Origin: Oscillospiraceae bacterium
GTDB taxonomy: Bacteria; Bacillota; Clostridia; Oscillospirales; Oscillospiraceae
Direction: 5' to 3'
Length of the DNA stretch: 64,000 bases
Assembly: GCA_015067765.1 (NCBI GenBank)
Contig: SVLV01000005.1
Coordinates: 1 to 64,000, forward strand
Positions 45,701-64,000 of this stretch are shown in pieces (positions within the stretch are counted from its first letter, which is position 1; each line of letters opens with the position of its first letter). Both the position numbers and the translations under genes were made by a program. The notes below the pieces were generated by a model, which did not search any database, was not told the DNA's origin, and saw only the letters and a program-made list of their open reading frames with translations.

Positions 45701-48700
45701 CCTGAACAAGAGCCAGCAGGTGCTGCTGCGTGTGCCCGGCGATCTGGCAACGGTGGAGGAGAACACCATCACGGTGCCCGACTATCCCGCCGGCCTGGGT
45801 GATCTGGTCTGGATCGCCACCTCCGCCAAGGCAACGCTGAACGGCGGCGGAACGGAGAATGTGGTGCTGGTGGCCGATAACGGCAGCCACAAGGGCACCA
45901 TCCAGGGCCTGTGGACCAAGGTGGACATCTACTACACCCTGACCTTCGGCCACAGCGATCTGGACGTGACTGCCGGTCAGCTGGAGTCTGCTCTGCTGCT
46001 GCCCCACACTCTGCATACGGAGTATACGATACAGAAGTCCCAGCTGGATCAGCTGGCAGCCTCTGCCGGCGAGCTGAGCATTCTGAATGCCGAGCTGATC
46101 GGTACGCTGAATGTGGCCATGGGTCAGCTGAGCACCGCAGAGGGCAAGGCTGCCGTGGAGACCATCGTTAACCGCATCAACGCCGGTGACGGCACCCTGA
46201 TGCTGGCAAAGATGGCCAACCAGTACAAGAACGGCGGCATGGTCTACTACTATCGCGACAACAACAGCATCCTGTTCCGGCAGGAGATGGAGATCATGTG
46301 CCAGGCCATGAATGACCTGCTGGATGATCCGCAATTCAAGTCCCTGTGGGAATCTCAGGGCGCATCTGCTGCCGGCGGCAAGAGCTATGAGGATCTGTTG
46401 GATATCCGGGATGAGCTCAACGGTGTGACGCTGCAGGCAGTGAATCCCGCCATCAACAATTCTCCGGAAAAGGTGATCGATCCGGATACCAATCAGGAGC
46501 GTGACCCGCTGGTCATTCTGGTGGACGCCCTGGAGGACATCCAGACCACCGTCTCCTCTGTGAACACCAGCTCCCTGGTCTGGACGGAGACCATGAGCCG
46601 TACCGGCGCCAACTACAGCAGCGTGAATGTGACCGTGTCCTACAAGGGTCAGACCATGACCAGCGATGCAGTGACCGTGGTTAAGGGCAGCGCCCTGAGT
46701 CAGGCGGATTACAACACGCTGGCCGGTTACCTGAGCGACATGGAGACGAAGCTGGGCGTGGATAAGAGCCACTACACCGTTTCCGGCGCTCTGCCCGCCG
46801 CAGGCACCGTCATCAGTGCCGATACCGCGGTGCAGGTCAACTGGACGGCCAAGACCTACACGGTGGTGCTGGAGGGTGAAGCGCCCTGGACCATCACCTA
46901 CGAGAACCGTACCATCCAGCTGCCCGCCTGCACCCAGGCCGGTCACCGCTATGACTACACCATCGACAATGAGGTGCTGGGCGCCGGTGCATATACCTTC
47001 GCAGCTGACCGGTTTGACGCTCTGTTTGCCAACGGAACTTACACCATCACCCGCAAGCTGGTGAACATCGCCGATGAGAAGATGTCCGCTCTGGTGGGTG
47101 AGATGAACGGCGCGGCAATCCTGAGTAAGGACGATGCGGGCAACTACTCCATCGTGGTGCCGGTGGATCCTGCCGCTGCAAAGGACGATCTGGTGGACTT
47201 TGTGATGGGCCTGGTGCTGGGCAACCAGTACAGCTACATCGGCATGAAGACCGGTGAGTATTCCGCCTCCCTGCTGGAGGGTGGTTCTCAGATGGTTCCC
47301 GCCATTGATACCTTCTATGCCAGCGGTAAGTACCACCTGCAGACCCTGCTGGACGGCATCGCCAACAGCGGCACCGGTACCGATGTGATCCTGAGCGCCA
47401 TCAACACTGACGGCTCTGTGAATCACATGAACCTGGCCGGCCAGACGGTGCTGGTGGGTGCAGCCGGTGAGACCCTGACCGCTCTGGGCGGCAAGGTGCT
47501 GGAGCTGCAGCTGTACTTCGGCGAGGACGATGAAAACAACGTTCCCGTGAAGCTGTACCTGACTCTCAACGGTGCAGCATCCGAGCTGACCAGCCTGCGC
47601 AACAAGCTGGCAGACCTGAAGGATTACGTACAGGTGGTGTGCGAGGACGGCCGCTTCAAGCTGAATGTGACGCTGCCCGAGCTGGCCTATGAGGCCTACA
47701 TGGCACTGCTGCTGATCAAGGGTGAGGCCGATATCCGCAACTTCGAGCAGGTGAATGCGGTAACCGCATTCGGCTGGATCATGGAGCTGATGGATGGCGT
47801 GCTGGAAGATCCCGATGTGACGCTGGATACCTATATTAATACTGCTGAAAAGCTGGGTCAGACCATCCAGAATGATCTGTCCGGTTATGAAGCTACTTAT
47901 CAGAAGCTGGTTGGTTACTACAACAAGGGCAAGAATGGGATCCATGAGGAGCAGGATGGCTGGTACATCGATCCCGTGGTCAGCATCGATTCCGTGGTGG
48001 ATAACCAGCTGCAGAAGCTGGTGGATCAGGCCGCCGCAGCAATGAATCTGCCGGCAGGTTCCCTGACCATGTCCGAGATGATCGCTGAGTACGGTACCGA
48101 GGGCATCCACTTCACGGCCGCTGCCAAGCTGACCAACCTGAACACGACTTACGATGCGCTGGTGTTTGACCTGCAGAAGGCAGAGCTTAAGAAGCTGGCC
48201 GGTCTGGAGGAGAACCTGGTGGCCAACGCCCCCGCCCTGTCCGGCATGGCGTCTGTGACGCTGCTGCGGGATGTGACGGTCCCGGCAGGGGAGAAGCTGA
48301 CCTTCTCCACCACCACGGTGCTGGATCTGAACGGCTACACCATCACCGGTGACATCGCCGCAACCGATACCCTGATCATCACCGACAGCCGCATCGGCAG
48401 CGAGAATGCCGGACAGGTCACCGGCAGCATCACCGGCAGCAAGGTCATGATCAATGCCGGTTATTATCCCAACTGCGATGTGTCTGCTTACCTGAAGAAC
48501 GGCTTTGCGCAGGATGCGCAGACCGGCATGGTCAGCAGCACCCTCTATACGGTGAGCAAGACCGAGGCCGCTGCCGGCGCCGGTTACGACGATGAGATCG
48601 TCATCACTGTGAACGCCTCCGCAGCAGAGCTGCGTCAGGCCGCCAACAAGCAGAGCCTGGCTCTGACTGCACTGGATGCCGTGCTGGATACGGTCCTGTC

Positions 48701-51700
48701 CTACTACAACAGCGCCAACCTCTATGTGGAGGGCGAGAAGGTCATCGATCTGTCTGTGGAGGATGTGGTGAACCTGATCAGCGGCAGTGATCGGATGGAT
48801 AAGCTCATCAATGAAAGCCTGAGCTTCTTCTCCGCAGCAGATCTGGCAGATCTGGTGAACCGTTTCACCGCCGATCTGACCGATTTTGCCGCCCTGAAGG
48901 ACGCCGTGGATAACGGCACTCCCGTGGCCGGTTACACCTTCTCTGTGGCACCCTGGGATATCCAGGTGCGCCGCGCAGCAGGGGACTATGTGACGGCAGA
49001 CATCGGCGGTATCGCGGCCGAGGCCAAGACCGGCAAGATCAGCATCGTCATCGACGGTGCACAGAAGGATGCCATCTCCACGGTTCTGGGTGCCTTTGCC
49101 GATACCATCGATGTGGATCTGCAGCTGGCGCTGAACGATCTGCAGCTGTCCGGTACCTCCATCCCCGTGACGGGCGAAGTGGACGGCAGCCTGGTGGCTG
49201 ATTTCTCCCACGATCCCAACTATGTGATCATGATGGCAGTGATCCTGGCCAACAGCGCAGACACTGCCCTGAAGAACGAACTGGTGGCCGCCGTGGAGGA
49301 GTACTACGGCTCCAGCAGCCTGGCTGAGATGGAGACGGTGTTTGACACCATCTCTGTGGAGGACCTGTGCACGGCCCTGCGCGGCAACGGGAACTTTGCC
49401 GCCATGGTGGATGCCCTGCCTCTGCAGGCAGCGACCAAGCAGGCCATCAAGTCCGAGATCGACGGCACCGAGAAGGGTTACTACGCTGTGATCGAGGCGG
49501 TGGGCCGCGTGCTGACCCGCCTGGATGTGACGGGCACCGAGGGCGCCCTGAACGGCAAGACCATGGGCGGCGTGAAGAAGACAGAGAAGAAGACCGATGC
49601 GGCAACGCAGGAGCAGATCGATGTCAACTATTACGGCGTCAGCAAGTCCCGGAGCTTTGATAAGTCTGTTGGCCTGCCGGGTGCCTATACCCTGGATACC
49701 GATATTCAGGTGTCCGACCTGTCCCTGAAGCTGTACCTGTTCACCGATGTTGCACGGATCAACGTCTCCTGCAACGGTGTGGTGACGGAGTATGAGGATT
49801 TGGCAACGGCCCTGAAGCATGTGGCAGCAGCCCATCAGAACTGCACCGTGTATGTCAATCTGGCACAGACGGAGCTGAAGGAAGATGTGGAGCTGAACCA
49901 CGATGTGACCATCGTACACGCCAACCGCATCGCTGCCGGCAGCAAGACGATCAAGCTGGCAACCGGTGTGGAGCTGCACACCGACGCAGCCATGCCTCAG
50001 GGCATGTTGGCAGCCAAGGACAGCGAGCAGTACACCATTGGCTGCACGCAGAGCGGCAATACCTATATCTATAAGCCCGTGGAGAACCGCGTCCACGTGA
50101 AGAACCCCAACGGCGATGTGCTCTACAGCGGCGAGGATCTGGCAGAGGCCATCAAGGCCGCTGTGGCCGGCAGTGTTATCACCATCAACGAGGAGATGGA
50201 GCTGCTGGAGGACGTGCTGGTGGAGGAATCCATTACGCTGGAGAACGCCGAGAACATTGACTTCGGCGACAAGAAGCTGATTCTGGACACTGAGGCCGTG
50301 CTGGTCACCGATTATGCCCTGCCTGCCGGCGCGATCGTGCCGGAGGATGCCGATCGCTACACCATCTCCCGTACCTTCGAAAACGGTGTTTATACCTACA
50401 CCGCACTGGAGAACGCCGTCCATGTGAACAAGGGTGAAGACCTGCTGAGCAGCGGCGACGATCTGATGGATGCCTTTGCCGCAGCAACCGACGGCAGCAC
50501 CCTGCAGATCAACAGACCCGTTGCCCTGACCGGAGATGTGACGCTGCATGCCGGCGTGACCATCCAGGGCGCTGCAAAGATCAACTTTGCCACCTTCCGG
50601 ATCCTGCTGGATCCCAACGGCGTGCTGGTTACCGACAGTGCCCTGCCTGTCGGCGCAGTGGTGCCGGTGGATGGTGACAGATACACCGTCACCTGCACGG
50701 AGGCAAACGGCGTGTTCACCTACGCAGTGCTGGAGAACCTGATCCACGTGACCAGAGGCAGCACCCTGCTCTACAGCGGCAGCGACCTGAATGCCGCCTT
50801 TGAGGCAGCCATGGCTACCGACGGCAGCACCATCACGGTGAACCGTGCCGTTACTCTAAGCCAGAAGGTTACCCTGACCGGCGTCACGGTGACCATTGTG
50901 GGTGCCGGCAACATCACCTTCGAGAAGGAGATCGTGCTGGGCATGAACTCCGCCGAGCTGAAGGCAGATGCCGACATCTCCGCCCATGTGGTTTCCGGCC
51001 TGGCAGACAGATATGTTCTGTGTGTCAACAACACCTACTCTCTGGCCAAGTATCCCTATCAGGTGGGCAGCAACTACTTCACCACCCTGCAGGATGCCAT
51101 TGACAGCATCTCCGACAGCGGTGTGATCACCGTGTACGGTGCAGCAGAGCTGAGCGGTCAGATCACCGTCAGCGGCAAGCAGATCTCTGTGGTGGGCGCC
51201 GATGCCCTGAGCGTGGATCTGAACACCCTGCGCATTACCCTCAGCCAGGTGGGCGACAGCTTCCAGCTGGATGCCGTGCCCGCCGGTGTGTCGGCACAGG
51301 AGCTGAAGTCCCACTTTGTCAGCGGTGCAGGTACCTGCTCCACGGTGGAAGTTACCGTCACCTCCGGCGTACAGGCCCTGGTGAAGGAGAAGCACACCAT
51401 GGTGGAGAAGGTGGACGACCAGTATCTGAAGGCCACCGCCACCACGACGGCTGCTGCCCAGTACTGGAAGAGCTGCTCTGTCTGCGGCACCGCCAGCACC
51501 ACGGAGTACTTCTCCCATGGCAGCCCGCTGAACACCGCACCCACCATCACCAAGCCTGTGATCTCCGGCTCCAGCAATCTGCTCTACGGTCACAAGATCG
51601 ACACGGACAACAAGATGCTGTATCTGGATATTCACAAGAACGGCATGACCGTGGAGGAACTGAAGGCTATTTTGGGCGCTGCGATGACCAACGACGCCGA

Positions 51701-52049
51701 TAACAAGCCGACCGTAACGGTGAACCTCACGGCAAACTTCAACAACCAGCTGCTGGTCTGCACCGGTTCCACTGTGGTGCTGACGGCGGAAAACAGCAGC
51801 GGACAGAAAGCCAGCATCACCTATCAGGTGGTCATCATGGGTGATACCAACAGCAACGGCCGTGTGGAATCCAACGACTCGCTGCGTATGAGCCTGCACT
51901 ATGTGAAGAAGCAGGAGCTGACCGGTCTGCAGCTGCTGGCTGCCGACAACAACCAGAATGGCAGAATCGAGTCGAACGATGCGCTGAAGAATGCCATCAA
52001 GTTTACGGGACGTGCCCAGCATGTTTCCGGTCTGAAAAACGATCGTTGA
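42762..52049 (+). CDS. Giant secreted surface protein (3095 aa) with signal peptide, coiled coils, tandem beta-rich repeats and C-terminal dockerin-like module
   Basis: MKRSKQFLKRGISLLLVFTMVLSMMPVVHVHAEE signal peptide; LNDKIEDLNDQL-type coiled coil; terminal GDTNSNGRVESNDSLRMSLHYVKKQELTGLQLLAADNNQNGRIESNDALKNAIKF. Confidence 0.92.
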   Translation: MKRSKQFLKRGISLLLVFTMVLSMMPVVHVHAEENVPTASLVDLIVKNYTDLSEEEKAVFKAGVLKDKTLSYRAPVQENSDALVSVESANKKVTAKVFQDEKGNLWTPVKYTVTVGEEVKETVALTKSGSVYLGVFTGTYEAYNIDVTYQLQWTVEHSALLNAVYELVDDYAALASLKEEDIKTLLGGLEMSSAETGNMTAIELIEKMANGGYELEVPGGFGDYLPGVNTTIVISGQPTKDASSALVDSMVDGKLPLSSYVNQTTLKWLVTDDRETLFDAIISSYENVKAMAEDPNGVATIGQQIQDLIDACEDADATVISQINDKVTDLNDAIDDLNTKIGDLNTKIGQLNDKIEDLNDQLPDGEPVIDTIDTIQPVAKVTVNTNGDDAQTALTKIDTALGTVGTSLTNLGTQLTGLGTDLSTLNSRIGEVITDIDETVEEANKQMDEAFDAINDEIDKVNVNLADEDKISHVDSVADVRALKGKLQAQANKVYDAIEEVAADNDQTVTIENADDVRDLKTDLQKTYNELLDTLNEELAEANATVRLYVGTENYFNTNVKNSDEVETEIGKMEDLLKIFPNLQDALTALEDARDVLVAIEDAVAQIDENLTNLDQLDAAIEAVNTALVGPNGNDGLEAAEDALAEAADYKAQLQDAQQQLNTAKDQLTPAQEEIASAGDTIDAAREDIAAAKDALLELPEKVESMKEMKKVIDKLPNLMTKFCDALAGAYQRTKSDAWYLDKNADILADQVDYAVLNEKVAAAVGHVTHRSPKEQLDVTEGTVRSNVGTVNVTVKLTVQAVGKDNVLTELTWTPDEMISVTEGTTKDVLLQKLAAAGVEAQGLATFDAYFNINTTNYTRTVSVLPETVTEDLVYEIFFVPKKMQVTKLWEAVGQQTYDVDYGELMVLPTHENSAKGYVYTVTVGQESQTLYQGTQIRVLSNMTIARVEGDAMTAFYLEDLLPKTHTVDPAVLALLNSGALNKSQQVLLRVPGDLATVEENTITVPDYPAGLGDLVWIATSAKATLNGGGTENVVLVADNGSHKGTIQGLWTKVDIYYTLTFGHSDLDVTAGQLESALLLPHTLHTEYTIQKSQLDQLAASAGELSILNAELIGTLNVAMGQLSTAEGKAAVETIVNRINAGDGTLMLAKMANQYKNGGMVYYYRDNNSILFRQEMEIMCQAMNDLLDDPQFKSLWESQGASAAGGKSYEDLLDIRDELNGVTLQAVNPAINNSPEKVIDPDTNQERDPLVILVDALEDIQTTVSSVNTSSLVWTETMSRTGANYSSVNVTVSYKGQTMTSDAVTVVKGSALSQADYNTLAGYLSDMETKLGVDKSHYTVSGALPAAGTVISADTAVQVNWTAKTYTVVLEGEAPWTITYENRTIQLPACTQAGHRYDYTIDNEVLGAGAYTFAADRFDALFANGTYTITRKLVNIADEKMSALVGEMNGAAILSKDDAGNYSIVVPVDPAAAKDDLVDFVMGLVLGNQYSYIGMKTGEYSASLLEGGSQMVPAIDTFYASGKYHLQTLLDGIANSGTGTDVILSAINTDGSVNHMNLAGQTVLVGAAGETLTALGGKVLELQLYFGEDDENNVPVKLYLTLNGAASELTSLRNKLADLKDYVQVVCEDGRFKLNVTLPELAYEAYMALLLIKGEADIRNFEQVNAVTAFGWIMELMDGVLEDPDVTLDTYINTAEKLGQTIQNDLSGYEATYQKLVGYYNKGKNGIHEEQDGWYIDPVVSIDSVVDNQLQKLVDQAAAAMNLPAGSLTMSEMIAEYGTEGIHFTAAAKLTNLNTTYDALVFDLQKAELKKLAGLEENLVANAPALSGMASVTLLRDVTVPAGEKLTFSTTTVLDLNGYTITGDIAATDTLIITDSRIGSENAGQVTGSITGSKVMINAGYYPNCDVSAYLKNGFAQDAQTGMVSSTLYTVSKTEAAAGAGYDDEIVITVNASAAELRQAANKQSLALTALDAVLDTVLSYYNSANLYVEGEKVIDLSVEDVVNLISGSDRMDKLINESLSFFSAADLADLVNRFTADLTDFAALKDAVDNGTPVAGYTFSVAPWDIQVRRAAGDYVTADIGGIAAEAKTGKISIVIDGAQKDAISTVLGAFADTIDVDLQLALNDLQLSGTSIPVTGEVDGSLVADFSHDPNYVIMMAVILANSADTALKNELVAAVEEYYGSSSLAEMETVFDTISVEDLCTALRGNGNFAAMVDALPLQAATKQAIKSEIDGTEKGYYAVIEAVGRVLTRLDVTGTEGALNGKTMGGVKKTEKKTDAATQEQIDVNYYGVSKSRSFDKSVGLPGAYTLDTDIQVSDLSLKLYLFTDVARINVSCNGVVTEYEDLATALKHVAAAHQNCTVYVNLAQTELKEDVELNHDVTIVHANRIAAGSKTIKLATGVELHTDAAMPQGMLAAKDSEQYTIGCTQSGNTYIYKPVENRVHVKNPNGDVLYSGEDLAEAIKAAVAGSVITINEEMELLEDVLVEESITLENAENIDFGDKKLILDTEAVLVTDYALPAGAIVPEDADRYTISRTFENGVYTYTALENAVHVNKGEDLLSSGDDLMDAFAAATDGSTLQINRPVALTGDVTLHAGVTIQGAAKINFATFRILLDPNGVLVTDSALPVGAVVPVDGDRYTVTCTEANGVFTYAVLENLIHVTRGSTLLYSGSDLNAAFEAAMATDGSTITVNRAVTLSQKVTLTGVTVTIVGAGNITFEKEIVLGMNSAELKADADISAHVVSGLADRYVLCVNNTYSLAKYPYQVGSNYFTTLQDAIDSISDSGVITVYGAAELSGQITVSGKQISVVGADALSVDLNTLRITLSQVGDSFQLDAVPAGVSAQELKSHFVSGAGTCSTVEVTVTSGVQALVKEKHTMVEKVDDQYLKATATTTAAAQYWKSCSVCGTASTTEYFSHGSPLNTAPTITKPVISGSSNLLYGHKIDTDNKMLYLDIHKNGMTVEELKAILGAAMTNDADNKPTVTVNLTANFNNQLLVCTGSTVVLTAENSSGQKASITYQVVIMGDTNSNGRVESNDSLRMSLHYVKKQELTGLQLLAADNNQNGRIESNDALKNAIKFTGRAQHVSGLKNDR
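50089..51150 (+). repeat. Divergent tandem protein repeats (about 100 aa) in the giant protein
   Basis: Repeated pattern [VI]HVxx(G)xxLLxSGxDLxxAFxAAxxGSTIxxNxxxxLxxDVTLxxxVTIxxAxxIxF...VLVTDxALPxGAxVPxDxDRYTxxxxxxNGVxTYxxLEN. Confidence 0.8.
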
Positions 52050-53215: not shown

Positions 53216-54709
53216 GTGCTTTTTAAGAAACATGCAAAATGGGGTGTTTTTTTGAAGGAAAACAACTGGAAGAGAATGGAATATGAGACCTGGGACGAGG
53301 CCTTCCGCGGTCAGGTGGCGGCAGTGCGCCAGCAGTCTGTCCGTGTGGCCGCCTATACACAGGCGCTGTTTCTGCAGGCCTGTGCCGATTCCTTCGGCAA
53401 AAACACCCCCGGCGGCAGCGATCAGATCCGCAGCCAGTACGGCGATCTGGCCTACAAGTGCGGACTGTATCATCAGCTGGGCAAGGCACTGGTCCCGCCG
53501 GAATATCAGATCTGGCAGAAGGACTATACGGAGGAAGAGGTGGCGGTGTACCAAAAGTACACCACGGACGGCCGCGCGCTGGTGGCGTCCCTGCAGGAGC
53601 GGGGGCAGCGTGCCAAAGAGAAGCGCAAGGGCGCCGTGGAGGAGCTGCCCACCCAGAACATCCCCTGGCTGATGATCCGGGAGAGCTGCGAGCAGCACAT
53701 GGAGCGCTGGAACGGGTCGGGATACCCCCACGGGCGACAGGGCAGACAGATCAGCCCCATCGCCCAGATCGTGGGTCTGGCCAAGGAACTGGACCGGCTG
53801 GCCTCCGAGACCAAGCGGGAGGATCCCTTTGAGGATGCCTGCCGCACCCTGCAGGAACAGGAGAATACCCTGTGGTCTCCGGAGCTGATCGCTGTGCTGA
53901 AAAATGCCCGCAGCAAGTGCCGCGCCGTGTACAACAAGTACATCCACTACACCATGACCGTGCCCAAGACGATCCCGCTGGTGAAGAAGACAAAGGATCG
54001 GCCCATGGGTCTGAGCTACCGGCCCATGGTGTCGGACATGACGGGGACGGTGGTTGCCTACGAGGCGGAGCCCTGGTACGGCGGCATCGCCAACAACCCC
54101 GGTGAGCGGGAGGGAACGGCGGAGATCCACGATATGCTGGTGCGCACCGGCATGATCGCGGACATGGCCTTCTACTTCCTGTATGAGGCGGCGGATGCGC
54201 TGGTACGCATCGAAAACTGCAGGCTGAACCTGCGGGGCGTGCTGGTGAATATGCTGCCCGGATTTTACACCCTGCCCACGCAGCTGCAGCGGTTTGAGCA
54301 GCTGTTTGAGGATCAGGGCATCGATCGCAGCAAGCTGTGGATCACGGTGCCGGAGGAGAGCTTCCGCAAGGCCACCAAGGGTCAGAAGGAACTGATGGCC
54401 CGGTATCTGCGCAACGGTGTCGTGCTGGTGCTGGATGGGGTACATCCGGAGGGCATGGACTGGGAGGAGGTCAAGGCTCTGGGTCTGCGCCATGTGCGCC
54501 TGGCACCGGAGACGGGTCTGAACCCCGATACCGCGCAGTTGATGAAGCAGCTGACGGCGGATGGCTTTGTGCTGCTGGGCGGCGGCGCCGATACCCACGA
54601 TCTGCTGGGCTGGCAGCTGGCCTGCGGCGTGAGCTGCAGCAGCGGTACGGTGACCGGTCTGCCGGTCAGCGAGGAGGAAATGATCCGGGACCGCCTGCTG
54701 GCTGAGTGA
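53216..54709 (+). CDS. Degenerate HD-GYP-like plus EAL-like regulatory protein
   Basis: YHQLGKALVP (HD to HQ), HMERWNGSGYPHGRQGRQISPIAQIVGLAKELDRL (GYP retained), VAYEAEPWYGG EAL-like region and C-terminal LGWQLACGVSCSSGTVTGLPVSEEEM. Confidence 0.6.
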   Translation: MLFKKHAKWGVFLKENNWKRMEYETWDEAFRGQVAAVRQQSVRVAAYTQALFLQACADSFGKNTPGGSDQIRSQYGDLAYKCGLYHQLGKALVPPEYQIWQKDYTEEEVAVYQKYTTDGRALVASLQERGQRAKEKRKGAVEELPTQNIPWLMIRESCEQHMERWNGSGYPHGRQGRQISPIAQIVGLAKELDRLASETKREDPFEDACRTLQEQENTLWSPELIAVLKNARSKCRAVYNKYIHYTMTVPKTIPLVKKTKDRPMGLSYRPMVSDMTGTVVAYEAEPWYGGIANNPGEREGTAEIHDMLVRTGMIADMAFYFLYEAADALVRIENCRLNLRGVLVNMLPGFYTLPTQLQRFEQLFEDQGIDRSKLWITVPEESFRKATKGQKELMARYLRNGVVLVLDGVHPEGMDWEEVKALGLRHVRLAPETGLNPDTAQLMKQLTADGFVLLGGGADTHDLLGWQLACGVSCSSGTVTGLPVSEEEMIRDRLLAE

Positions 54710-55818
54710 TGGCCATGAAAAAGAAACAGACGCCTCCTGTGGAGGCACAAGGAACAACCCTCCCCCAGGGACACACCCCCCAGCGGCGGCTGCTGAAAAA
54801 GCGCCGCGCAGGTGTGGTGCTCTCCCGGGAAGAGGTCAGGACCATACAGCTGGGGCGCAAAAAGCTGCGCCGGGAGCTGCGGAAGAAGGGCATCAAAAAA
54901 CGCAAGGATTTTGAGCTGACCGCTTCCAGTCTGGGCCTGTATTTTGACAAGAACCGTCTGGGTGCGCTGCTGCTGTGGCTGCTCCACGGACGGGGACTTT
55001 GGGCATTGCTGGGTGCAGCCGGCCTGCTGCTGACGGTACTGTTTGCCTTCTCCCTGATCTCACAGATGCAGGGACATTTCACCATCAACCTGACAGGAGA
55101 TCTGCTGAAGGAGGGCTTTGTGCTCAGCGAAACGGCGGATTTCAAAGAGGGCTCCATGCGTCTGTTTGCAGAACCTGCCACAGACGTGCCCTGCTTTTCC
55201 CTGGCGGACCTGCACGAAGATGTGAACGATGTGGACGGCCAGCACAACGAGGCCGGCTACTTTGCCTACACCTTCTACATCCGCAATGAGGGCGAAAACA
55301 CGGTGGATTACGACTGGGAGCTGGTCATCAACTCCGAGAGCAGAAATCTCACCGATGCCACATGGGTCATGTTCTTCGAGGACAACCGGATGAACATGTA
55401 TGCCAAGGCCCGGACGGACGGAAGTCAGGAGGCGCTGCCCGGTTTCGGCGACAACAGCCGGGGCTATCTGCGCGTGCCGCTGGCGGACCGTGCTGCATCG
55501 GAGGACCTGTACCGGGTGGTTGCCACCCGGGGCGGCGTGAACTATTACCGCGTGGTCCCCACCTCCTTTGAGAGCGATGACATAGTGACCTCCGGCACCC
55601 AACTGCAGGTGGCCCCTATGGAGACCCACAAGTACACGATCGTCATCTGGCTGGAGGGCGATGATCCCGACTGCACCGACGAACTGATCGGTGGCCATGC
55701 CGGTGTGGAGATGCGTTTCCACATGGCAGAGGAAGAGGAAACAGATGACCCGGCAGACAGCGGTGTGCTGACCCACTGGGATGCCTTTTGGGACAACCTG
55801 CTGTTCTGGAAAGATTAA
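54709..55818 (+). CDS. Membrane-anchored TasA-like/SipW-associated surface protein with long basic cytoplasmic N-terminus
   Basis: Single TM (LWALLGAAGLLLTVLFAFSLI) then beta-rich ectodomain; WLEGDDPDCTDELIGG motif shared with the 58471-59463 product. Confidence 0.55.
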   Translation: MAMKKKQTPPVEAQGTTLPQGHTPQRRLLKKRRAGVVLSREEVRTIQLGRKKLRRELRKKGIKKRKDFELTASSLGLYFDKNRLGALLLWLLHGRGLWALLGAAGLLLTVLFAFSLISQMQGHFTINLTGDLLKEGFVLSETADFKEGSMRLFAEPATDVPCFSLADLHEDVNDVDGQHNEAGYFAYTFYIRNEGENTVDYDWELVINSESRNLTDATWVMFFEDNRMNMYAKARTDGSQEALPGFGDNSRGYLRVPLADRAASEDLYRVVATRGGVNYYRVVPTSFESDDIVTSGTQLQVAPMETHKYTIVIWLEGDDPDCTDELIGGHAGVEMRFHMAEEEETDDPADSGVLTHWDAFWDNLLFWKD

Positions 55819-55940: not shown

Positions 55941-58265
55941 ATGAATTATACGCAAAAGCGGCAGATGAGCATTCGCAACAAGCTGTTTGGTGCCATCTCC
56001 ATGCTGCTGGTTGCCAGTATCATGATGGTTTCCACCACCTATGCGTGGTTCACCCTGTCCACGGCTCCGGAAGTGCAGGGCATCACCACCACGGTGGGCT
56101 CCAACGGCAATCTGGAGATCGCCCTGTCCCCCACGGACGGTGATTCCGACAGCATCACCAGCGCCATGGGTGATTCTGACAAGAGCTGGGCGATCAAGAA
56201 CCTGACCTGGGGTAACCTGCTGAATCTGAGCGATACCAGCTACGGCCTGGGCGGGATCAGTCTGCTGCCTGCACAGCTGAGCATCTCCGACTCCGGTCTG
56301 ACCACCGCCCCGCTGAAGACCCCCACCTACGGTGCCGACGGTCGTATCAGCCAGCTGGAGGCCAACACCGCCTATGGTAAGTACACCAACCAGGGCTACG
56401 AGGTGGACAGCGCATTCCGCGGCGTCCGCGCCATTGGTACCTCCTCCACCATGACGGAGTACCAGATCACCTTCAACAACTATCTGGCCAAGATGGGTAC
56501 CGACGCCGCCGCTGCCAGAAGCCTGGCGGAGTCCTCCCTGCGCAACAACGGTTCGAAGCTGGCCGATATGGCGGTGTCCCACGCAACGGTTTCCGGCACG
56601 GATGGCAACAACTACAAAGAGTATGTTACCGCTATGGAAAATGTTGTCACCACCATGCTGGAGGCCAATGCCAAGCTGAAGGACTCCATCTATGCCGGTG
56701 CCGTGGCCGCTGTGGCCAGTAACTTCTCCGGCAACGATCACGCTATGTATACTGTCGCCATGAACATGGTGAACAACAACGCCACCCTGGAGGAATTGAT
56801 GGTGGCCGCCCAGAAGGCCAACTGGGTGGATGAGGCCGATCACAGCAAGGGCATTGAGGTGCCTACTGCGGACATTGGCAACAACCCCCTGGGCATGGCC
56901 TACAATGCCTGGAAGCTGATCAATACCAATCTGTCCGAGGCCAACACCGCTATCGCCACCCTGAAGCAGGATGACGATGTCAGATGGGATGAGGCATCCA
57001 CCGTGCTGACCAAGATGATGAACACCGAGGGCGTCAAGGTCAACAACAAGAACCTGACGGAACTGAAGGAACTGGCCTCCTGGTATCTGGCAGATAGAAT
57101 TAACCCGGGTGAGGAGAATTATCAGAAGCAGCAGGACGCCATCACCTTCGTGAACTCCATGCTGCGCAACATCGAGGTGCAGCTGGATGCACGGTCCGGC
57201 GTCTACGGTGACATGGCCTCCATGGTGGGCAACCTGAGCGCCACCATCGGCCTGAACGTGAGCTATGCAGGTGTTACGCTGAAGGATGCTCCCGCCACCA
57301 TCAAGACCACCAATGCCAGCCCCAGCGATTCCGGTACCATGGGCCGCGCCCGCACCACTCTGGCCAATCTGGGCGCCCTGCAGACCAACGACAGCACCTC
57401 TACCGGTATGCTGAACGAGACCTACGGCTACATGGTGGACTTCTACTTCCGCACCAACGCCAACGGCTCCAAGCTGCAGCTGCAGAGCGATGCCGCCCAG
57501 CGTGTCTATGAGAGCAGCCAGAGCCAGGCGACTCAGGGCTCCGGCAGCACCATGACCTTCACCACCGGCACCATCAGTGTGCAGGCCGTGGAGAACCTGA
57601 TGGACTGCATCCGCGTGGTCTTTGTGGATCCCACCAACAATGCCGTGTTCGGCATTGCCAAGCTGGATGCCACCACCATCGCCCACGCTGGCAACAGCGA
57701 CGGCACCACCGCCGTGACGGCCAAGCTGAAGCTGTATGACTACACCATCAATGCCGACGGCAGCCTGACCCTGTCCGCACCCAAGACCAGCGCGGCTCTG
57801 TGCGACATGCCCACCAATACCGCCAAGGCAGTTTCTGCTCTGGTGTATCTGGATGGCGATCAGGTGACCAACGCCGATGTGGCCAATGCCGCCACCGCTA
57901 TGACCGGTACCATGAACCTGCAGTTCTCCAGCTCTGCCGAGCTGGTGCCCATGGAGAATGCGGCACTGGAGAACATGGCGGATAACTCCGGCAGCGGCTC
58001 CGGCAACAACCAGCAGCCCGCTCTGACCGCCACCACCGTGACGCTGCAGGGCGAAGCCTCCACCGTTACCGTGACCGGTTACAAGACGGCGGAGAGCCAG
58101 AGTGCTGAGCCGCAGACGGTGACCCTGGATGGCACCAATCCCCAGACGGTGACGGTGTATACCGGAACCAGTGTGGATTACACCGTGACCGTGGGTGATG
58201 GCTTTGCGGTAACGCAGGATCCCACCCATACCTGGACGGTTGCCACGGCACCCGCAAACCCCTAA
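55941..58265 (+). CDS. Major TasA/SipW-type exported matrix protein candidate (774 aa)
   Basis: N-terminal IRNKLFGAISMLLVASIMMVSTTYAWFTLSTAPEVQGI (SipW-type signal anchor with TYAWF motif). Confidence 0.65.
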   Translation: MNYTQKRQMSIRNKLFGAISMLLVASIMMVSTTYAWFTLSTAPEVQGITTTVGSNGNLEIALSPTDGDSDSITSAMGDSDKSWAIKNLTWGNLLNLSDTSYGLGGISLLPAQLSISDSGLTTAPLKTPTYGADGRISQLEANTAYGKYTNQGYEVDSAFRGVRAIGTSSTMTEYQITFNNYLAKMGTDAAAARSLAESSLRNNGSKLADMAVSHATVSGTDGNNYKEYVTAMENVVTTMLEANAKLKDSIYAGAVAAVASNFSGNDHAMYTVAMNMVNNNATLEELMVAAQKANWVDEADHSKGIEVPTADIGNNPLGMAYNAWKLINTNLSEANTAIATLKQDDDVRWDEASTVLTKMMNTEGVKVNNKNLTELKELASWYLADRINPGEENYQKQQDAITFVNSMLRNIEVQLDARSGVYGDMASMVGNLSATIGLNVSYAGVTLKDAPATIKTTNASPSDSGTMGRARTTLANLGALQTNDSTSTGMLNETYGYMVDFYFRTNANGSKLQLQSDAAQRVYESSQSQATQGSGSTMTFTTGTISVQAVENLMDCIRVVFVDPTNNAVFGIAKLDATTIAHAGNSDGTTAVTAKLKLYDYTINADGSLTLSAPKTSAALCDMPTNTAKAVSALVYLDGDQVTNADVANAATAMTGTMNLQFSSSAELVPMENAALENMADNSGSGSGNNQQPALTATTVTLQGEASTVTVTGYKTAESQSAEPQTVTLDGTNPQTVTVYTGTSVDYTVTVGDGFAVTQDPTHTWTVATAPANP

Positions 58266-58470: not shown

Positions 58471-59463
58471 TTGCAGACAAAGGAAAGGCGCAGCAATGGA
58501 AGAGCGCTGCGCGTGGTGAGTTATCTGTATGTGATTTTGATTCTGCTCATATTGTCTGTGGTGGCCACCTATACCTGGTTTGCAATGAGCCGGGCCCCGA
58601 AGGTCAGTGACCTGGGACTCTATGTCAATGCCCCCACCGGTCTGGAGCTTTCGCAGGACCCGCAGGCAGAGGAGTGGGTACTGCAGTTGGATTTCCCCGC
58701 CCTGGTGGGCGAAACCGCACCGCTGCGGCCGGTGACCTGGTCCCAGCAGAACGGACAGTTTTTTGCAGCAACTTACGGGCATGACGGGCGGCGCACCAAT
58801 GTGTGGGAGCCGCTGACCGATGAGCGCCATGCCAATCAGAATAACGCCGACGGATACTATGTCGTTGGCACCTTTTACGCCCGCAGTCAACAGGTGACGA
58901 CGGTGCACCTCTCCCCGGCGGTGGAGGTGGACGATGGACTGCAGGGCGCCGGAACCTATGTGATCGGCACCCCGGTATGGGATGACGAGCGGGTGCTCCA
59001 CAGCGATGGAGGCAACGGAGCACAGCAGGCCATCCGCATCGGCCTGCGGGTGCAGAAGACCGATCTGCAGGGCAATGCCGCCGGAGACAGTACCTTTTAT
59101 ATCTACGAACCCAATGCCGACACCCATGTGGACGGCACCACCGGATACATCGCCACCCCCAATATGGATGATGGGGCGGGTCTGGTGGATGAGGCGCATC
59201 TGATCACCCAGACCACCAGTCAGTGGGAAGAGGTGTCCCCCGTGGAACGGAATGTGGTGATGCGCACGCTGGGGGAATTTACCAGCGAAACAGAGCTTTT
59301 TTCCATCGGTCCGGAGGAGCTGGTGCAGATCCGCCTCTATGTCTGGCTGGAAGGCCAGGATGTGGACTGCAGCAATGCCATCGGACAGGCCGCACAGGTG
59401 GTGGCCAGCATCCAGTTTGGTACGGCGGATGATACGCAGTCCGGACTGGTTCCCATTGGTTAA
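58471..59463 (+). CDS. TasA/SipW-type exported protein
   Basis: VVSYLYVILILLILSVVATYTWFAMSRAPKVSDLGLYV; C-terminal VWLEGQDVDCSNAIGQAAQVVASIQF. Confidence 0.65.
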   Translation: MQTKERRSNGRALRVVSYLYVILILLILSVVATYTWFAMSRAPKVSDLGLYVNAPTGLELSQDPQAEEWVLQLDFPALVGETAPLRPVTWSQQNGQFFAATYGHDGRRTNVWEPLTDERHANQNNADGYYVVGTFYARSQQVTTVHLSPAVEVDDGLQGAGTYVIGTPVWDDERVLHSDGGNGAQQAIRIGLRVQKTDLQGNAAGDSTFYIYEPNADTHVDGTTGYIATPNMDDGAGLVDEAHLITQTTSQWEEVSPVERNVVMRTLGEFTSETELFSIGPEELVQIRLYVWLEGQDVDCSNAIGQAAQVVASIQFGTADDTQSGLVPIG

Positions 59464-59514: not shown

Positions 59515-60354
59515 ATGAAGAAGAAGTTGAAGGAACCCTCTGCCGCAAAGGACGTGCAGACCCAGCAGGTCAATGAGAACGGGGAAGTGGTGAAGGAGCA
59601 GAGCAAGAAACAGAAGATCATCGGCATGCTGATCAACGTGTTGCTGGTGGTGGCCATTGCGTTGGCCGCTGTTTCCACCTATGTCTCCTATGTGTCCACC
59701 TCCGGAAACGGTGTGCCCAGCATTCTGGGCATTCGGATCTTCTCCATTCAGACCAAATCCATGTATCCCACCCTGCTGCCCGGCGACCTGATCTTCGATG
59801 TGGCAGTCAATGACCCCGGCGAGCTGAAGAAGGGGGATATCATCACCTACTGGACCGTGATCAACGGGGAGCGGGTGCTGAATACCCATACCATCCATGA
59901 GATCTACGATGGCGGTGATTACCGGATCTTCAGCACCAAGGGTGACAACAACACCGCCGCCGACCCCCTGACCGTCCATGAGGCGGAGGTGGTGGGCAAG
60001 TATGTGGCCCGGGTGGGCGGTCTGGGCAAGGTGTTTGACTACCTGCAGACCAGCACCGGCTTTTTGATCGTGGTGGTGATCCCGGTATTTCTGTTCTTCC
60101 TGTTCTATCTGATCCAGTTCTTCCGGGTGCTGTTTGAGTATCAGAATGTGAAGAACCTGATCAAGTATGAGCAGGAGCGGGGCCGCACGGAGGATCTGAT
60201 CGCCGAGGAGGCCCGCAGACAGCAGGAGACCAAGGACAGAGAACGGGCGGCGCTGGAGGCAGAGCTGCGGGAGAAACTGCGCGCCGAGCTGATGGCCGAT
60301 ATGGGCATTGCCAAGCCTGAACCGGAGGAGAAAAAAGAGACGCCGGAGCAGTAA
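59515..60354 (+). CDS. SipW-like (ER-type) signal peptidase I
   Basis: IFSIQTKSMYPTLLPGDLIF, KKGDIITYW, FSTKGDNNTAADPLTV; N- and C-terminal TMs. Confidence 0.85.
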   Translation: MKKKLKEPSAAKDVQTQQVNENGEVVKEQSKKQKIIGMLINVLLVVAIALAAVSTYVSYVSTSGNGVPSILGIRIFSIQTKSMYPTLLPGDLIFDVAVNDPGELKKGDIITYWTVINGERVLNTHTIHEIYDGGDYRIFSTKGDNNTAADPLTVHEAEVVGKYVARVGGLGKVFDYLQTSTGFLIVVVIPVFLFFLFYLIQFFRVLFEYQNVKNLIKYEQERGRTEDLIAEEARRQQETKDRERAALEAELREKLRAELMADMGIAKPEPEEKKETPEQ

Positions 60355-60412: not shown

Positions 60413-62023
60413 ATGGACAACTTTTTTCGATATTTTTATCAGGATATTGGCCGGGTGTTCCGTGCATTTCTGGAGATTTTCGGCGCATTTTTCGACTTTT
60501 TGAATTATCTGCTGAACTTCCCCATGCGCATGGAGATCATCGAGAGCTACGAGGGGGAATTCTCCATAGGAGAGTGGATCGCCCTGTTTGTGGCCAATCT
60601 GGCGCTGATCGTTGCGGCGGTGGCGCTGTTTGTGGTGCTGGGCAGGCTGCTGCGCAAGGTGTTCCGCCGCTATGTGCCCGCCAAGAAGTATGACGAGGTG
60701 GTGCGGCAGGTCCGCACCCTGCAGCGGGATCTGATCCGGGCCAACTACGAGAAGGACAAGCTGCTGGCCATGCGTGTGGCGGAACTGGGCGGCAGCGCCG
60801 AGGGTCTGAGCACCGATGACCTGCTGAAGGGTCTGAAGGACGAGGAGGAGTCTGTGCCGGAGCAGGAGGAGAAGAAGGAGGAGGAGTTTGTGGCGGATAT
60901 GACCCGCAACAACATCCATTCCCCCTGTGTGGATCCCCAGGAGAGCCGTTTCTTCCGTCTGACCTCGGTGGACAACTTCTACAAGACCACCTATGTGGTG
61001 CCCGCCTATGACGACGAGATCACCCTGGAGGAGTTCTGCATCCGGTTCCGCAAGTACGCAGCCTCCCAGCTGCAGCTGTACTACGATCTGGACATGATGC
61101 GGTATTTCATCGCCTCGCTGGGTACGGCCCGCATCATCATTCTGCAGGGTATTTCCGGTACCGGTAAGACCTCGCTGCCCTACGCCTTCGGTAAGTTTGT
61201 CAACAACCCCACCTCCGTGGTATCGGTGCAGCCGGCCTGGCGTGAGCGCACGGAGCTCTACGGTTATTTCAACGAGTTTTCCAAGAAGTATTCGGAGACG
61301 GACTTCCTGCGTGCCGTCTATGAGGCCAACTACTACCGGGATCCCCACATGGTGATCCTGGATGAGATGAACATCGCCCGCGTGGAGTACTACTTTGCCG
61401 AGATGCTCTCCATTCTGGAGATGCCCCGGCAGGAGGAGCGGGTGATGGATATTGTGTCCGCCACCTGGGAGAACGACCCCTGCCTGATCCACAACGGCAA
61501 GGTGCAGATCAGCGACAACGTGTGGTTTGTGGGCACCATCAACAACGACGACTCCACCTTCGCCGTGGCCGATAAGGTGTACGACCGTGCCATCCCCATC
61601 GACCTGGACAGCCGCGCCGATCCCTTCGCCTGTGAACCCACCGATCCGGTCTATGTGTCCACCGACCATCTGGTGAAGCTGTTTGACGAGGCCAAGGAGC
61701 AGTATCCCATCAGCCAGAGCTCCATGGATAAGCTGGAGGAACTGAACGCATATCTGATCAAGAATTTCCGTCTGGCCTTCGGTAACCGTATCATGAAGCA
61801 GATCCACGACTATGTGCCCTGCTTTGTGGGCTGCGGCGGTACGGAGCAGCAGGCCATCGACTTCATCGTGGCCAAGAAGGTGCTGCGTAAGTTTGAATCC
61901 CTGAACCTGGGCTTTATGAAGGATGAGCTGACCAAGTTCAACAATTATCTGGACAAGCTGTTCGGCAAGAATGCCATGAAGATCTGCAAGGACTACGTGG
62001 AGCTGCTGAAGAGAAACAACTAA
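60413..62023 (+). CDS. Membrane-anchored McrB-like AAA+ ATPase
   Basis: N-terminal TM; Walker A LQGISGTGKTSLPYAFG; Walker B MVILDEMNIARVEYYFAEML; sensor VWFVGTINNDDSTF...VYDRAIPIDL. Confidence 0.82.
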   Translation: MDNFFRYFYQDIGRVFRAFLEIFGAFFDFLNYLLNFPMRMEIIESYEGEFSIGEWIALFVANLALIVAAVALFVVLGRLLRKVFRRYVPAKKYDEVVRQVRTLQRDLIRANYEKDKLLAMRVAELGGSAEGLSTDDLLKGLKDEEESVPEQEEKKEEEFVADMTRNNIHSPCVDPQESRFFRLTSVDNFYKTTYVVPAYDDEITLEEFCIRFRKYAASQLQLYYDLDMMRYFIASLGTARIIILQGISGTGKTSLPYAFGKFVNNPTSVVSVQPAWRERTELYGYFNEFSKKYSETDFLRAVYEANYYRDPHMVILDEMNIARVEYYFAEMLSILEMPRQEERVMDIVSATWENDPCLIHNGKVQISDNVWFVGTINNDDSTFAVADKVYDRAIPIDLDSRADPFACEPTDPVYVSTDHLVKLFDEAKEQYPISQSSMDKLEELNAYLIKNFRLAFGNRIMKQIHDYVPCFVGCGGTEQQAIDFIVAKKVLRKFESLNLGFMKDELTKFNNYLDKLFGKNAMKICKDYVELLKRNN

Positions 62024-62045
62024 GAAGAGAGAGGAGCGAGACGCG

Positions 62046-63902
62046 GTGGCAGCAAAAGGGCAGACAAAAGGAAATCGGAAAAAGGGCTCGGCTGCGCGGA
62101 TCGATCCCATTTATCAGAAGTTTACCAAGGGCGTGATGCGGGCGATCTCCAGCACGGAGTTCTATGAGTTTTTCATGGATGCGCTGGCGAAGGCGGAAAA
62201 CGAGATCCAGTTTTCCAACCGCAAGCTGGAAAAGGCGGTGGATCTGAACTGGATCGATCAGATCGAAAAGACGCTGCCGGCCATGCAGAACATCATCTCC
62301 AGCCCCCGTAACGTGATCCGGGAGGAGGAGCTGATCGTCAACGCGGCCCACGCCAAGAAGGCGGGGCCGGATGTGGTGCGCCATCTGAGCCAGCACGCCT
62401 CCTTTGTGGAGGACTACAACGAGCGCAGCGGGGATGTGCGTCCCTCCCGGTTGATGCAGAAGTACCGGGACGACTCGGAGGAGCTGTACGAAAACCGGCT
62501 GGTGTTCACCACCATGGAGATGGCCTACCACTTCGTCAAGATTCGTCACGACGCCCTGTTTGAAGCCATGAGCGACGAATACGGCGCCAAGCTGCGGGTC
62601 CGGTCGGATATGCAGAGCGCCACGGAATCGGTGCACATGGAGATGTTCTTGCACATCAAGGAGACGGAGTCGGCCATGGCTGCCGACGAGCGCAACTCGG
62701 AGATCTTCGGCCGCATTTCCCGGATCTACCGGCTGCTGTCGGTGTTTATGAACAGCACCTTTGCCCAGCATATGGCCAAAGCGCCCCGCATCAAGGGCAC
62801 CATCATCAAGACCAACGTGCTGAAGAAAAATCCCGATTACCGGCACATTGAGCATCTGCTGGAGTACCTGCGCGGGTATTCCGATATCGGTTATTCCATC
62901 CGGGTGATCGAGCAGAGTCCCGAGATCAGCGAGACCTTCCAGCGGGACATTTTCCACAATGTGTTATTCAACTACATGGTGCTGAAGGGGTATCTGGAGG
63001 ATGAGACGGACCGTGTCATTCCCACCAAGCCCTATGAAAAGCAAAAGACCCTGAAGCCGAAGTTTGTGCATCAGATCATCGAGGAGCTGACGGAGGACTA
63101 CGACCTGCCGGATGTGGAGATCCGCAAGGTGCTCATCGAGGAGCTGACCAAGGAGCAGCTGATGCATGAGGAGGCGGAGGAGCGCCGCCGTCTGGTGGAG
63201 GAGCAGGCCCGGAAAAAGAAGGAGGAGGCCGAGCGGATCCGTCAGGAGAAGGCGGCGGAGCGGGAGCGCATCCGGCAGGAGAAGGAAGCCGAGCGGGAGC
63301 GGATCCGTCAGGAGAAAGAGGCGGAGAAGCAGCGGCTGTTCCACGAGCGGATGATGCGGGAGGCGGAGGATCGCCGCCGCAGCGCTCTGCTGCGCAAGGA
63401 ACTGGAGCGCTTTGAAGAGGAGCGGGCCGATCAGATCGCTGCCCGCAAGGCCGCCTGGGCCAAGTATCTGGCAGAGCAGGAAGACTTTGCCGATGCCGCC
63501 CGGCTGCTGGAGGAGGCAGAGCAGCGCAAGCTGGAGCAGGCGGAGCGGGAGCGCATCCGCCGTGAGGAGGAGCAGGCCCGGGCCGCCCGGGAGAAACTGC
63601 TGGAAGAGGAGCGGCGCAGACAGGAGAAGCTGCGGCAGAAGGAGGAGGCCCGTCGGGCAGAGCTTGCCCGGCAGGCGGAGCTGGAGCGGCAGGCCCGTGA
63701 GGAGCTGGAGCGGCAGATCGCAGCCGAGCGCCAGCTGCTGAAGGACTATGACCTGTGCCTGCAGGAGTTCTATGCCTCTCTGGAGGGACATAAGGCGCAG
63801 CGCGCGGCCTATGTCAGAAGCCTGGAGGAGGAGCAGGAGCGCCGGGAGCAGGAGCGCCGGGAGCGCATGGCCCAGCGGGCCGGACAGAAAGCGGCCCGAT
63901 GA
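62046..63902 (+). CDS. DUF2357-like partner of the McrB-like ATPase with long charged coiled coil
   Basis: ELYENRLVFTTMEMAYHFVKIRHDAL and RISRIYRLLSVFMNS; C-terminal E/R/Q-rich coiled coil. Confidence 0.6.
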   Translation: MAAKGQTKGNRKKGSAARIDPIYQKFTKGVMRAISSTEFYEFFMDALAKAENEIQFSNRKLEKAVDLNWIDQIEKTLPAMQNIISSPRNVIREEELIVNAAHAKKAGPDVVRHLSQHASFVEDYNERSGDVRPSRLMQKYRDDSEELYENRLVFTTMEMAYHFVKIRHDALFEAMSDEYGAKLRVRSDMQSATESVHMEMFLHIKETESAMAADERNSEIFGRISRIYRLLSVFMNSTFAQHMAKAPRIKGTIIKTNVLKKNPDYRHIEHLLEYLRGYSDIGYSIRVIEQSPEISETFQRDIFHNVLFNYMVLKGYLEDETDRVIPTKPYEKQKTLKPKFVHQIIEELTEDYDLPDVEIRKVLIEELTKEQLMHEEAEERRRLVEEQARKKKEEAERIRQEKAAERERIRQEKEAERERIRQEKEAEKQRLFHERMMREAEDRRRSALLRKELERFEEERADQIAARKAAWAKYLAEQEDFADAARLLEEAEQRKLEQAERERIRREEEQARAAREKLLEEERRRQEKLRQKEEARRAELARQAELERQAREELERQIAAERQLLKDYDLCLQEFYASLEGHKAQRAAYVRSLEEEQERREQERRERMAQRAGQKAAR

Positions 63903-63924: not shown

Positions 63925-64000
63925 ATGAACAAACTGCTTGCCAAGCTGTTGACGGTGACGCTGGCCCTTACGGTGTCGGCTGCGTTGATGGTGATGTCTT
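63925..64000 (+). CDS. Start of another exported protein, cut by window edge
   Basis: ATG with signal-peptide-like MNKLLAKLLTVTLALTVSAALMVMS, co-directional with upstream operon. Confidence 0.55.
   Translation, partial: MNKLLAKLLTVTLALTVSAALMVMS

What the first reader, a model, noticed from the sequence alone, without database searches (positions are those of the whole stretch)
60413..63902. Membrane-anchored McrB-like AAA+ ATPase with a nuclease-less-looking DUF2357-like partner in a surface-fibre operon
Seen: the ATPase has an N-terminal TM, and McrB-type Walker A/B and sensor signatures (DEMNIARVEYYFAEM). The next gene encodes a DUF2357-like region followed by about 220 residues of E/R/Q-rich coiled coil; I see no obvious PD-(D/E)XK motif. 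Established: McrBC pairs are usually restriction/defence nucleases. Inference: this pair may be repurposed as an envelope-associated motor/remodeller for fibre export, or it may be a defence module parked beside it.
Basis: partly seen in the sequence, partly recalled or inferred. Interest (0 to 1): 0.75.

Follow-up and report, generated by a model that had tools for sequence, protein, structure and literature searches.

The report
McrBC-derived membrane motor in fibre operon
Gut Clostridia carry, inside an operon for exported surface-fibre proteins, a membrane-anchored motor built from the parts of a DNA-restriction system but without the DNA-cutting part, so an antiviral machine seems to have been turned into a cell-surface assembly machine; the family was named in one paragraph of a 2024 paper but its function has not been tested.

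Summary
60413-62023 encodes a 536-aa AAA+ protein with one N-terminal transmembrane helix, a coiled coil and an McrB-type NxD nucleotide-binding core. 62046-63902 encodes a McrC-type DUF2357 domain followed by about 260 residues of coiled coil, with no PD-(D/E)XK domain. The pair is a member of the "CoCoPALM" clade, named in one paragraph of Bell et al. 2024 (eLife; PMC11090510), function unknown.

In 80 related loci the partner is adjacent in 78, a SipW-like signal peptidase lies within 6 kb in 76 and a fibre-type exported protein in 78. No viral contig matched. Among 293 Clostridia genomes, a membrane-anchored paralogue of the fibre subunit (54706-55818 here) occurs in exactly the same 10 genomes as the motor, while strong SipW-like peptidases occur in 78. 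The motor also goes with its own fibre class, carrying a W-x-[ED]-G-x-D-x-x-C motif (83/91 motor loci against 1/21 SipW loci without motor).

Two corrections: the fibre proteins do not match TasA/BsaA families, and the closest non-fibre sisters sit beside another surface protein, so membrane anchoring probably came before the SipW link. NTP-driven fibre anchoring or assembly is likely but inferred.

The parts
60413..62023 (+). McrB-like NxD AAA+ NTPase, membrane-anchored (536 aa)
   Evidence: ORF; AAA_5 weak, PADLOC PDC-M26A 1.4e-43; E. coli McrB closest in PDB by sequence; tree
60584..60640 (+). Transmembrane helix, about residues 58-76, followed by a basic stretch (C-terminal AAA+ side predicted cytosolic) and a coiled coil of about residues 90-124 (FtsB-like arrangement)
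   Evidence: hydropathy 2.93, a comparable helix in all 34 PALM rows; AF2 helices H52-85 and H90-124; weak FtsL hits in 4 members
61148..61171 (+). Walker A GISGTGKT
61352..61378 (+). Walker B VILDEMNIA
61532..61558 (+). NxD-type sensor/consensus loop GTINNDDST (N-N-D followed by a second D)
   Evidence: G374, T375, N377, N378, D379, S381 and T382 invariant in 65 sequences, D380 at least 90%; GTxNNDDST in all 34 PALM rows of the motif scan; NxD definition in PMC11090510
62046..63902 (+). McrC-like partner, DUF2357 plus long coiled coil, no nuclease (618 aa)
62256..62912 (+). DUF2357 (McrC N-terminal type) region, residues 71-289, with the YENR motif
   Evidence: hhalign to CoCoNuT partners, prob 99.8
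63114..63896 (+). Coiled coil, residues 357-617, in the place where McrC has its nuclease
   Evidence: AF2 single helix H357-617; length varies among relatives
59515..60354 (+). SipW-related (ER/archaeal-type) signal peptidase I
   Evidence: TIGR02228 81.1 bits over cut-off 51.85; NF046067 85 bits, cut-off 190
54706..55818 (+). Membrane-anchored paralogue of the fibre subunit ('anchor', called P370 here): basic cytosolic tail, one TM, exported domain with WLEGDDPDC, no A-W-F processing site
   Evidence: alignments A3, A6; same 10 of 293 genomes as the motor
58471..59463 (+). Fibre-type exported subunit with SipW-like signal (ATYTWFAMS) and WLEGQDVDC motif
55941..58265 (+). Large exported subunit with SipW-like signal (TTYAWFTLS), 774 aa
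   Evidence: no Pfam family
63925..64000 (+). Start of the next exported subunit (SSFAWFTMS, WLEGQDEDC); it continues in the contig, followed by a second SipW-like peptidase and further exported proteins
   Evidence: L001

Best explanation
The two genes are a CoCoPALM-type McrBC derivative working in the cell envelope. Shown by sequence: a membrane-anchored NxD McrB-like AAA+ protein; a McrC-like DUF2357 partner whose nuclease is replaced by a coiled coil; a near-constant operon context of SipW-like peptidase, a membrane-anchored fibre-subunit paralogue and a distinct class of exported fibre subunits. Inferred: the AAA+ protein forms a hexamer on the inner face of the membrane; the DUF2357 protein sits in the ring and stimulates NTP hydrolysis as McrC does; its coiled coil, instead of cutting DNA, connects the ring to the cytosolic tail of the anchor subunit or to neighbouring rings; hydrolysis drives anchoring, release or polymerisation of the fibre after the signal peptidase has cleaved the other subunits.
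For: Partner adjacent in 78/80 loci (the other two are cut by the contig end), SipW-like peptidase within 6 kb on the same strand in 76/80, fibre-type subunit in 78/80. In 293 Clostridia genomes the anchor gene and the motor occupy the same 10 genomes, from 9 families, against 78 with strong SipW-like peptidase. In the genus, 5/32 have the motor and 6/32 the anchor; the sixth is a contig end. The W.[ED]G.D..C fibre motif is in 83/91 motor loci and 1/21 SipW loci without motor. No nuclease in the partner. PDDEXK_7 was found in 5 of 196 genomes, none of them a motor genome. TM helix in all PALM, two-ATPase and L111 rows, absent from the four CoCoNuT rows and from the nuclease-paired rows L112 and L117. 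PALM clade one side of a branch, 93/81. No relative in viral contigs. The ATPase is the slowest-evolving of the four operon families compared, mean distance 0.46 against 0.64-0.65. McrC-type proteins stimulate the McrB hexamer from its central pore (PMC7680126).
Against: No experiment shows a fibre, a motor activity or an interaction. Known TasA fibres assemble by donor-strand exchange (PMC9674648), so a motor is not obviously needed. Patchy occurrence (5 of 32 species in the genus) is also typical of defence genes. PADLOC's candidate model PDC-M26A matches the ATPase (1.4e-43), although it matches every NxD AAA core tested. The PALM branch is not strongly supported (93/81), and co-occurrence counts are not corrected for phylogeny. 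In G145 the anchor lies about 37 kb from the motor and its frame is broken.
Confidence: 0.62

Rival explanations
1. Defence module: a CoCoNuT-like anti-phage system in which the membrane-bound pair senses infection at the envelope, for example through the fibre as a phage receptor, and acts by abortive infection without its own nuclease.
For: Family background is Type IV restriction (tree); PADLOC PDC-M26A hit; patchy distribution in the genus; plasmid-borne relatives of the AAA core exist.
Against: No nuclease in the partner; no nuclease or toxin domain in the operon genes scanned, whereas CoCoNuTs that lost the McrC nuclease always have another one nearby (PMC11090510); constant operon with exported proteins and the anchor; none in viral contigs, and the plasmid relatives never cover 80% of the query; PDC-M26B is not matched by the partner.
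Confidence: 0.13
2. Regulator or quality-control chaperone rather than assembly motor: the AAA+ ring with its partner remodels or disassembles misprocessed subunits, or controls SipW-like peptidase activity or operon expression, with no direct role in polymerisation.
For: MoxR/AAA_5 proteins are commonly chaperone-like remodellers (NorQD, titles and abstracts); c-di-GMP-type HD/EAL genes lie beside several of the operons.
Against: The TM anchor and the strict tie to one membrane subunit and one fibre class point to a structural partner, but do not exclude this.
Confidence: 0.2
3. Hitch-hiking: two operon genes with no functional link to the fibre genes.
For: SipW-like fibre operons mostly exist without the pair (68 of 78 genomes).
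Against: Pair inside the operon in nearly all loci across families, exact co-occurrence with the anchor, correlated distances 0.77 and 0.73.
Confidence: 0.05

Closest known systems
[quoted passage not shown] 2024 eLife, PMC11090510
   Same: NxD McrB-like protein fused to TM plus coiled coil (FtsB-like), McrC homologue with coiled coil, signal peptidase neighbours
   Different: The main text gives one paragraph and no mechanism; supplements could not be read. Here added: nuclease absence checked over the family, a dedicated membrane-anchored subunit, a distinct fibre-subunit class, and a TM-anchored sister group without a SipW-like gene.
CoCoNuT systems (Type IV restriction-like, PMC11090510)
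   Same: NxD AAA core, DUF2357 partner with coiled coils, nuclease often lost
   Different: No TM helix, partner loss of nuclease compensated by nearby nucleases, not in fibre operons
E. coli / T. gammatolerans McrBC (6ut6, 6hz4; PMC7680126)
   Same: AAA+ McrB ring and McrC N-terminal (DUF2357) regulator
   Different: NxxD motif, DNA-binding N-domain instead of TM, PD-(D/E)XK nuclease present
B. subtilis tapA-sipW-tasA (PMC9674648) and SipW/BsaA operons (TIGR04088/TIGR04090)
   Same: SipW-like peptidase beside exported fibre subunits with an N-terminal hydrophobic signal
   Different: No AAA+ motor, different subunit family, anchoring attributed to TapA rather than to a subunit with a cytosolic tail

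Membership tests
CoCoPALM (Bell et al. 2024) | McrB-like AAA core with NxD, not NxxD, motif | tested here: met
   GTINNDDST; aligned with the NxD set GTxNxD[ED][ST]T. Caution: NNDD can be read as NxxD without a gap, but the tree places it with NxD proteins.
CoCoPALM (Bell et al. 2024) | GTPase fused to FtsB-like TM plus coiled coil | tested here: met
   TM in all 34 PALM rows, then helix 90-124. FtsB homology itself only weakly seen (FtsL hit 0.001 in 4 members).
CoCoPALM (Bell et al. 2024) | Association with signal peptidase family proteins | tested here: met
   76/80 loci
CoCoPALM (Bell et al. 2024) | Coiled coil fused to the McrC homologue | tested here: met
   helix 357-617 in the model; Lachnospiraceae forms are shorter (384-447 aa), so usual rather than universal
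CoCoPALM (Bell et al. 2024) | Same sequences as in the authors' clade | not testable with these tools
McrBC Type IV restriction | PD-(D/E)XK nuclease in McrC | tested here: not met
McrBC Type IV restriction | McrC N-terminal DUF2357 domain | tested here: met
McrBC Type IV restriction | GTP rather than ATP hydrolysis | not testable with these tools
   needs an enzyme assay
CoCoNuT | Cytosolic coiled-coil CnuB without TM | tested here: not met
   TM present; absent from the four CoCoNuT-like rows
CoCoNuT | Another nuclease nearby when the McrC nuclease is lost | tested here: not met
   no nuclease family in the operon proteins scanned
TasA/BsaA SipW-dependent fibres | Subunits match TasA/TIGR04088/TIGR04090 | tested here: not met
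   TIGR04088 weak (0.035 at best) in 4 of 40 members; the motor-less operon L127 in the same genus does match
SipW signal peptidase | NF046067 equivalog cut-off | tested here: not met
   85 bits against 190; TIGR02228 is met
PDC-M26 defence candidate (PADLOC) | Both PDC-M26A and PDC-M26B | tested here: not met
   A matched, B not matched by the partner at E up to 1; the A model matches every NxD core tested

The most novel reading that the evidence does not exclude
A restriction-derived GTPase/ATPase ring at the membrane is a dedicated energy source for building or anchoring a Gram-positive surface fibre, acting through a fibre subunit kept in the membrane with a cytosolic tail. This would be a class of fibre machinery distinct from type IV pili, sortase pili, chaperone-usher and self-assembling TasA.
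Probability: 0.45. Interest if true: 0.88.

Novelty: new member of a known kind. Interest (0 to 1): 0.6.

Why it matters
If the inference is right, an antiviral motor has been converted into an envelope machine, and gut bacteria including Ruminococcus bromii would build surface fibres with a cytosolic NTPase, which SipW/TasA systems are not known to have. The exact match between motor and membrane-anchored subunit makes the idea testable with one operon and one Walker mutant. It also warns that PADLOC-type models will label such operons as phage defence.

Tried and rejected
Foldseek of the partner model against PDB: no hit below 0.001. E. coli McrC chains appear at ranks 8 and 16 (E 0.29 and 0.58) and are not significant, probably because the long helix spoils the comparison. 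Foldseek of the ATPase gives general AAA+ (MCM, dynein, Lon, NorQ, McrB), which does not discriminate. PDB search with the partner profile: only coiled-coil chance hits. PDB search with the fibre-subunit profile: nothing. Phage hits to MT835511 and MT837127 are remote AAA matches (30-32% identity) on unannotated faecal contigs and were not pursued. Defence reading from PADLOC rejected as non-specific. The R. bromii and TasA literature searches gave no report of this operon. The McrC basic residue that contacts the NxxD loop (PMC7680126) was not mapped onto the partner.

Full report
Setting. The window is bases 1-64000 of a 75.6-kb contig of a 1.54-Mb, 58-contig genome about 79% complete. All genes discussed lie on the plus strand. 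The contig continues past the window as L001.

The two genes. The ATPase (60413-62023, 536 aa) and the partner (62046-63902, 618 aa, GTG start) are 22 bp apart. A SipW-like gene ends 58 bp upstream and the next exported protein starts 22 bp downstream, so they form one operon by layout. The ATPase has one strong transmembrane helix near residue 58, a helix at 90-124 and an AAA core whose nearest solved relative is E. coli McrB. Its sensor region reads GTINNDDST. This is the NxD version (N-N-D followed by a second acidic residue) that Bell et al. define for one large branch of McrB proteins (PMC11090510). A gap-free reading as NxxD is also possible, but the tree places the protein with the NxD set.

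The partner. Pfam finds nothing in the window protein alone, but 34 of 77 family members match DUF2357, the McrC N-terminal domain, at up to 8.5e-13. Profile comparison to CoCoNuT partners gives 99.8% probability and E 2.5e-28 over residues 71-289. Against nuclease-bearing McrC proteins the match (94.9%) covers only DUF2357 and stops before the nuclease. The same Pfam scan that detects PDDEXK_7 in five McrC controls does not detect it in any PALM partner examined singly, nor does it appear among the 25 commonest families of the 77-member scan. The model has about 60 residues between the DUF2357 region and a single helix running from 357 to 617, which leaves no room for a nuclease domain of about 160 residues. 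The gene therefore keeps the regulator part of McrC and has a coiled coil where the nuclease was.

Relatives and context. A scan of genome contigs found more than 480 relatives; the best 80 were kept. The partner is adjacent in 78 (two loci end at the contig edge), a SipW-like peptidase lies within 6 kb in 76, and a fibre-type exported protein in 78, all on the same strand. They come from Oscillospiraceae, Lachnospiraceae and Ruminococcus, including R. bromii and Anaerosporobacter faecicola. No viral contig holds a relative. On plasmids only remote relatives of the AAA core occur, none covering 80% of the query.

A dedicated anchor subunit. Upstream lies P370 (54706-55818). Its exported part shares the C-terminal motif W-x-E-G-x-D-x-x-C with the fibre subunits, but it lacks their A-W-F processing site and has a basic cytosolic tail before its membrane helix. 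In 293 Clostridia genomes P370 (E below 1e-8) is found in exactly the 10 genomes, from 9 families, that have the SipW-linked motor, while 78 have a SipW-like peptidase over the cut-off. Treated as independent draws the coincidence would be about 1e-12 even among SipW genomes, but genomes are related, so this is only a guide. In one of the ten (G145) the P370 match is broken by stops and lies about 37 kb away. In the genus 5 of 32 species have the motor and 6 have P370; the sixth sits on an 8.5-kb contig that ends before the motor's place. In a sample of 300 genomes of the phylum P370 was found only in the window's own genome.

A dedicated fibre class. The motif W.[ED]G.D..C occurs in 83 of 91 motor loci and in 1 of 21 SipW loci that lack the motor. 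A motor-less SipW operon in the same genus (L127) has subunits that match the known families TIGR04088 and TIGR04090, whereas the motor-linked subunits do not do so significantly. These are SipW-associated exported proteins of their own class, and their fold was not tested.

Descent. In a tree of the AAA domain the SipW-linked proteins form one side of a branch (93/81). Next to them is a group with two membrane-anchored ATPases flanking a DUF2357 partner (L108, L109); there the operon carries a 1350-1390-aa membrane-anchored protein with a transglutaminase domain and no SipW-like gene. Then comes L111, also membrane-anchored, and then the CoCoNuTs, which have no membrane helix. Membrane anchoring thus seems to precede the SipW link. 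Long branches make the deeper joins unsure.

What it is. These features fit CoCoPALM, named in one paragraph by Bell et al. with further work announced. No later paper was found. Their supplementary list could not be checked, so membership rests on the features tested here.

How it may work. McrC sits in the pore of the McrB hexamer and stimulates hydrolysis through its N-terminal domain, and a rotary mode has been proposed (PMC7680126). TasA fibres assemble by donor-strand exchange, with TapA thought to nucleate and anchor them (PMC9674648). Putting these together, I infer a membrane-bound ring whose partner's coiled coil reaches the cytosolic tail of the anchor subunit and uses hydrolysis to anchor, prime or release the fibre. 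Nothing here shows a fibre, an interaction or an enzymatic activity. The rival readings are a chaperone or regulatory role (20%) and a defence role (13%). The PADLOC hit does not decide the matter, since the same model matches every NxD core tested, with or without a nuclease partner.

Noticed in passing
window 53216-54709; L044:7321-7977; L101:2523-3482: HD_5 and/or EAL (c-di-GMP phosphodiesterase type) genes lie just upstream of the anchor gene in several operons. In the window protein the HD and EAL motifs look degenerate (read by eye), which hints at c-di-GMP sensing.
   Followed up: partly
L059:17151-20363 (Ruminococcus bromii 5AMG): The R. bromii operon encodes a 1071-aa exported protein with InlB-like repeats and a CBM26 starch-binding module, so the fibre may carry starch-binding parts in this resistant-starch degrader.
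   Followed up: no
L108, L109 (G170, G281): Sister systems with two membrane-anchored McrB-like proteins flanking one DUF2357 protein, next to a large transglutaminase-domain surface protein, beside ribosomal-protein genes.
   Followed up: partly
L111 (G183): A membrane-anchored McrB-like protein with several TM helices and an 835-aa partner without Pfam hits, in a housekeeping neighbourhood.
   Followed up: no
window 42762-52049: A 3095-aa exported protein upstream of the operon ends in what looks by eye like two dockerin-type repeats (GDTNSNGRVESNDSLRMSL, ADNNQNGRIESNDALKN).
   Followed up: no
L001:5938-7887 and L001:15129-15617 (contig beyond the window): Further surface proteins in the same operon region: a beta-helix protein and a BspA-type LRR_5 protein.
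   Followed up: no
60413-62023 and relatives: PADLOC's PDC-M26A model hits every NxD McrB-like core tested, so automatic annotation would call these fibre operons phage defence.
   Followed up: yes
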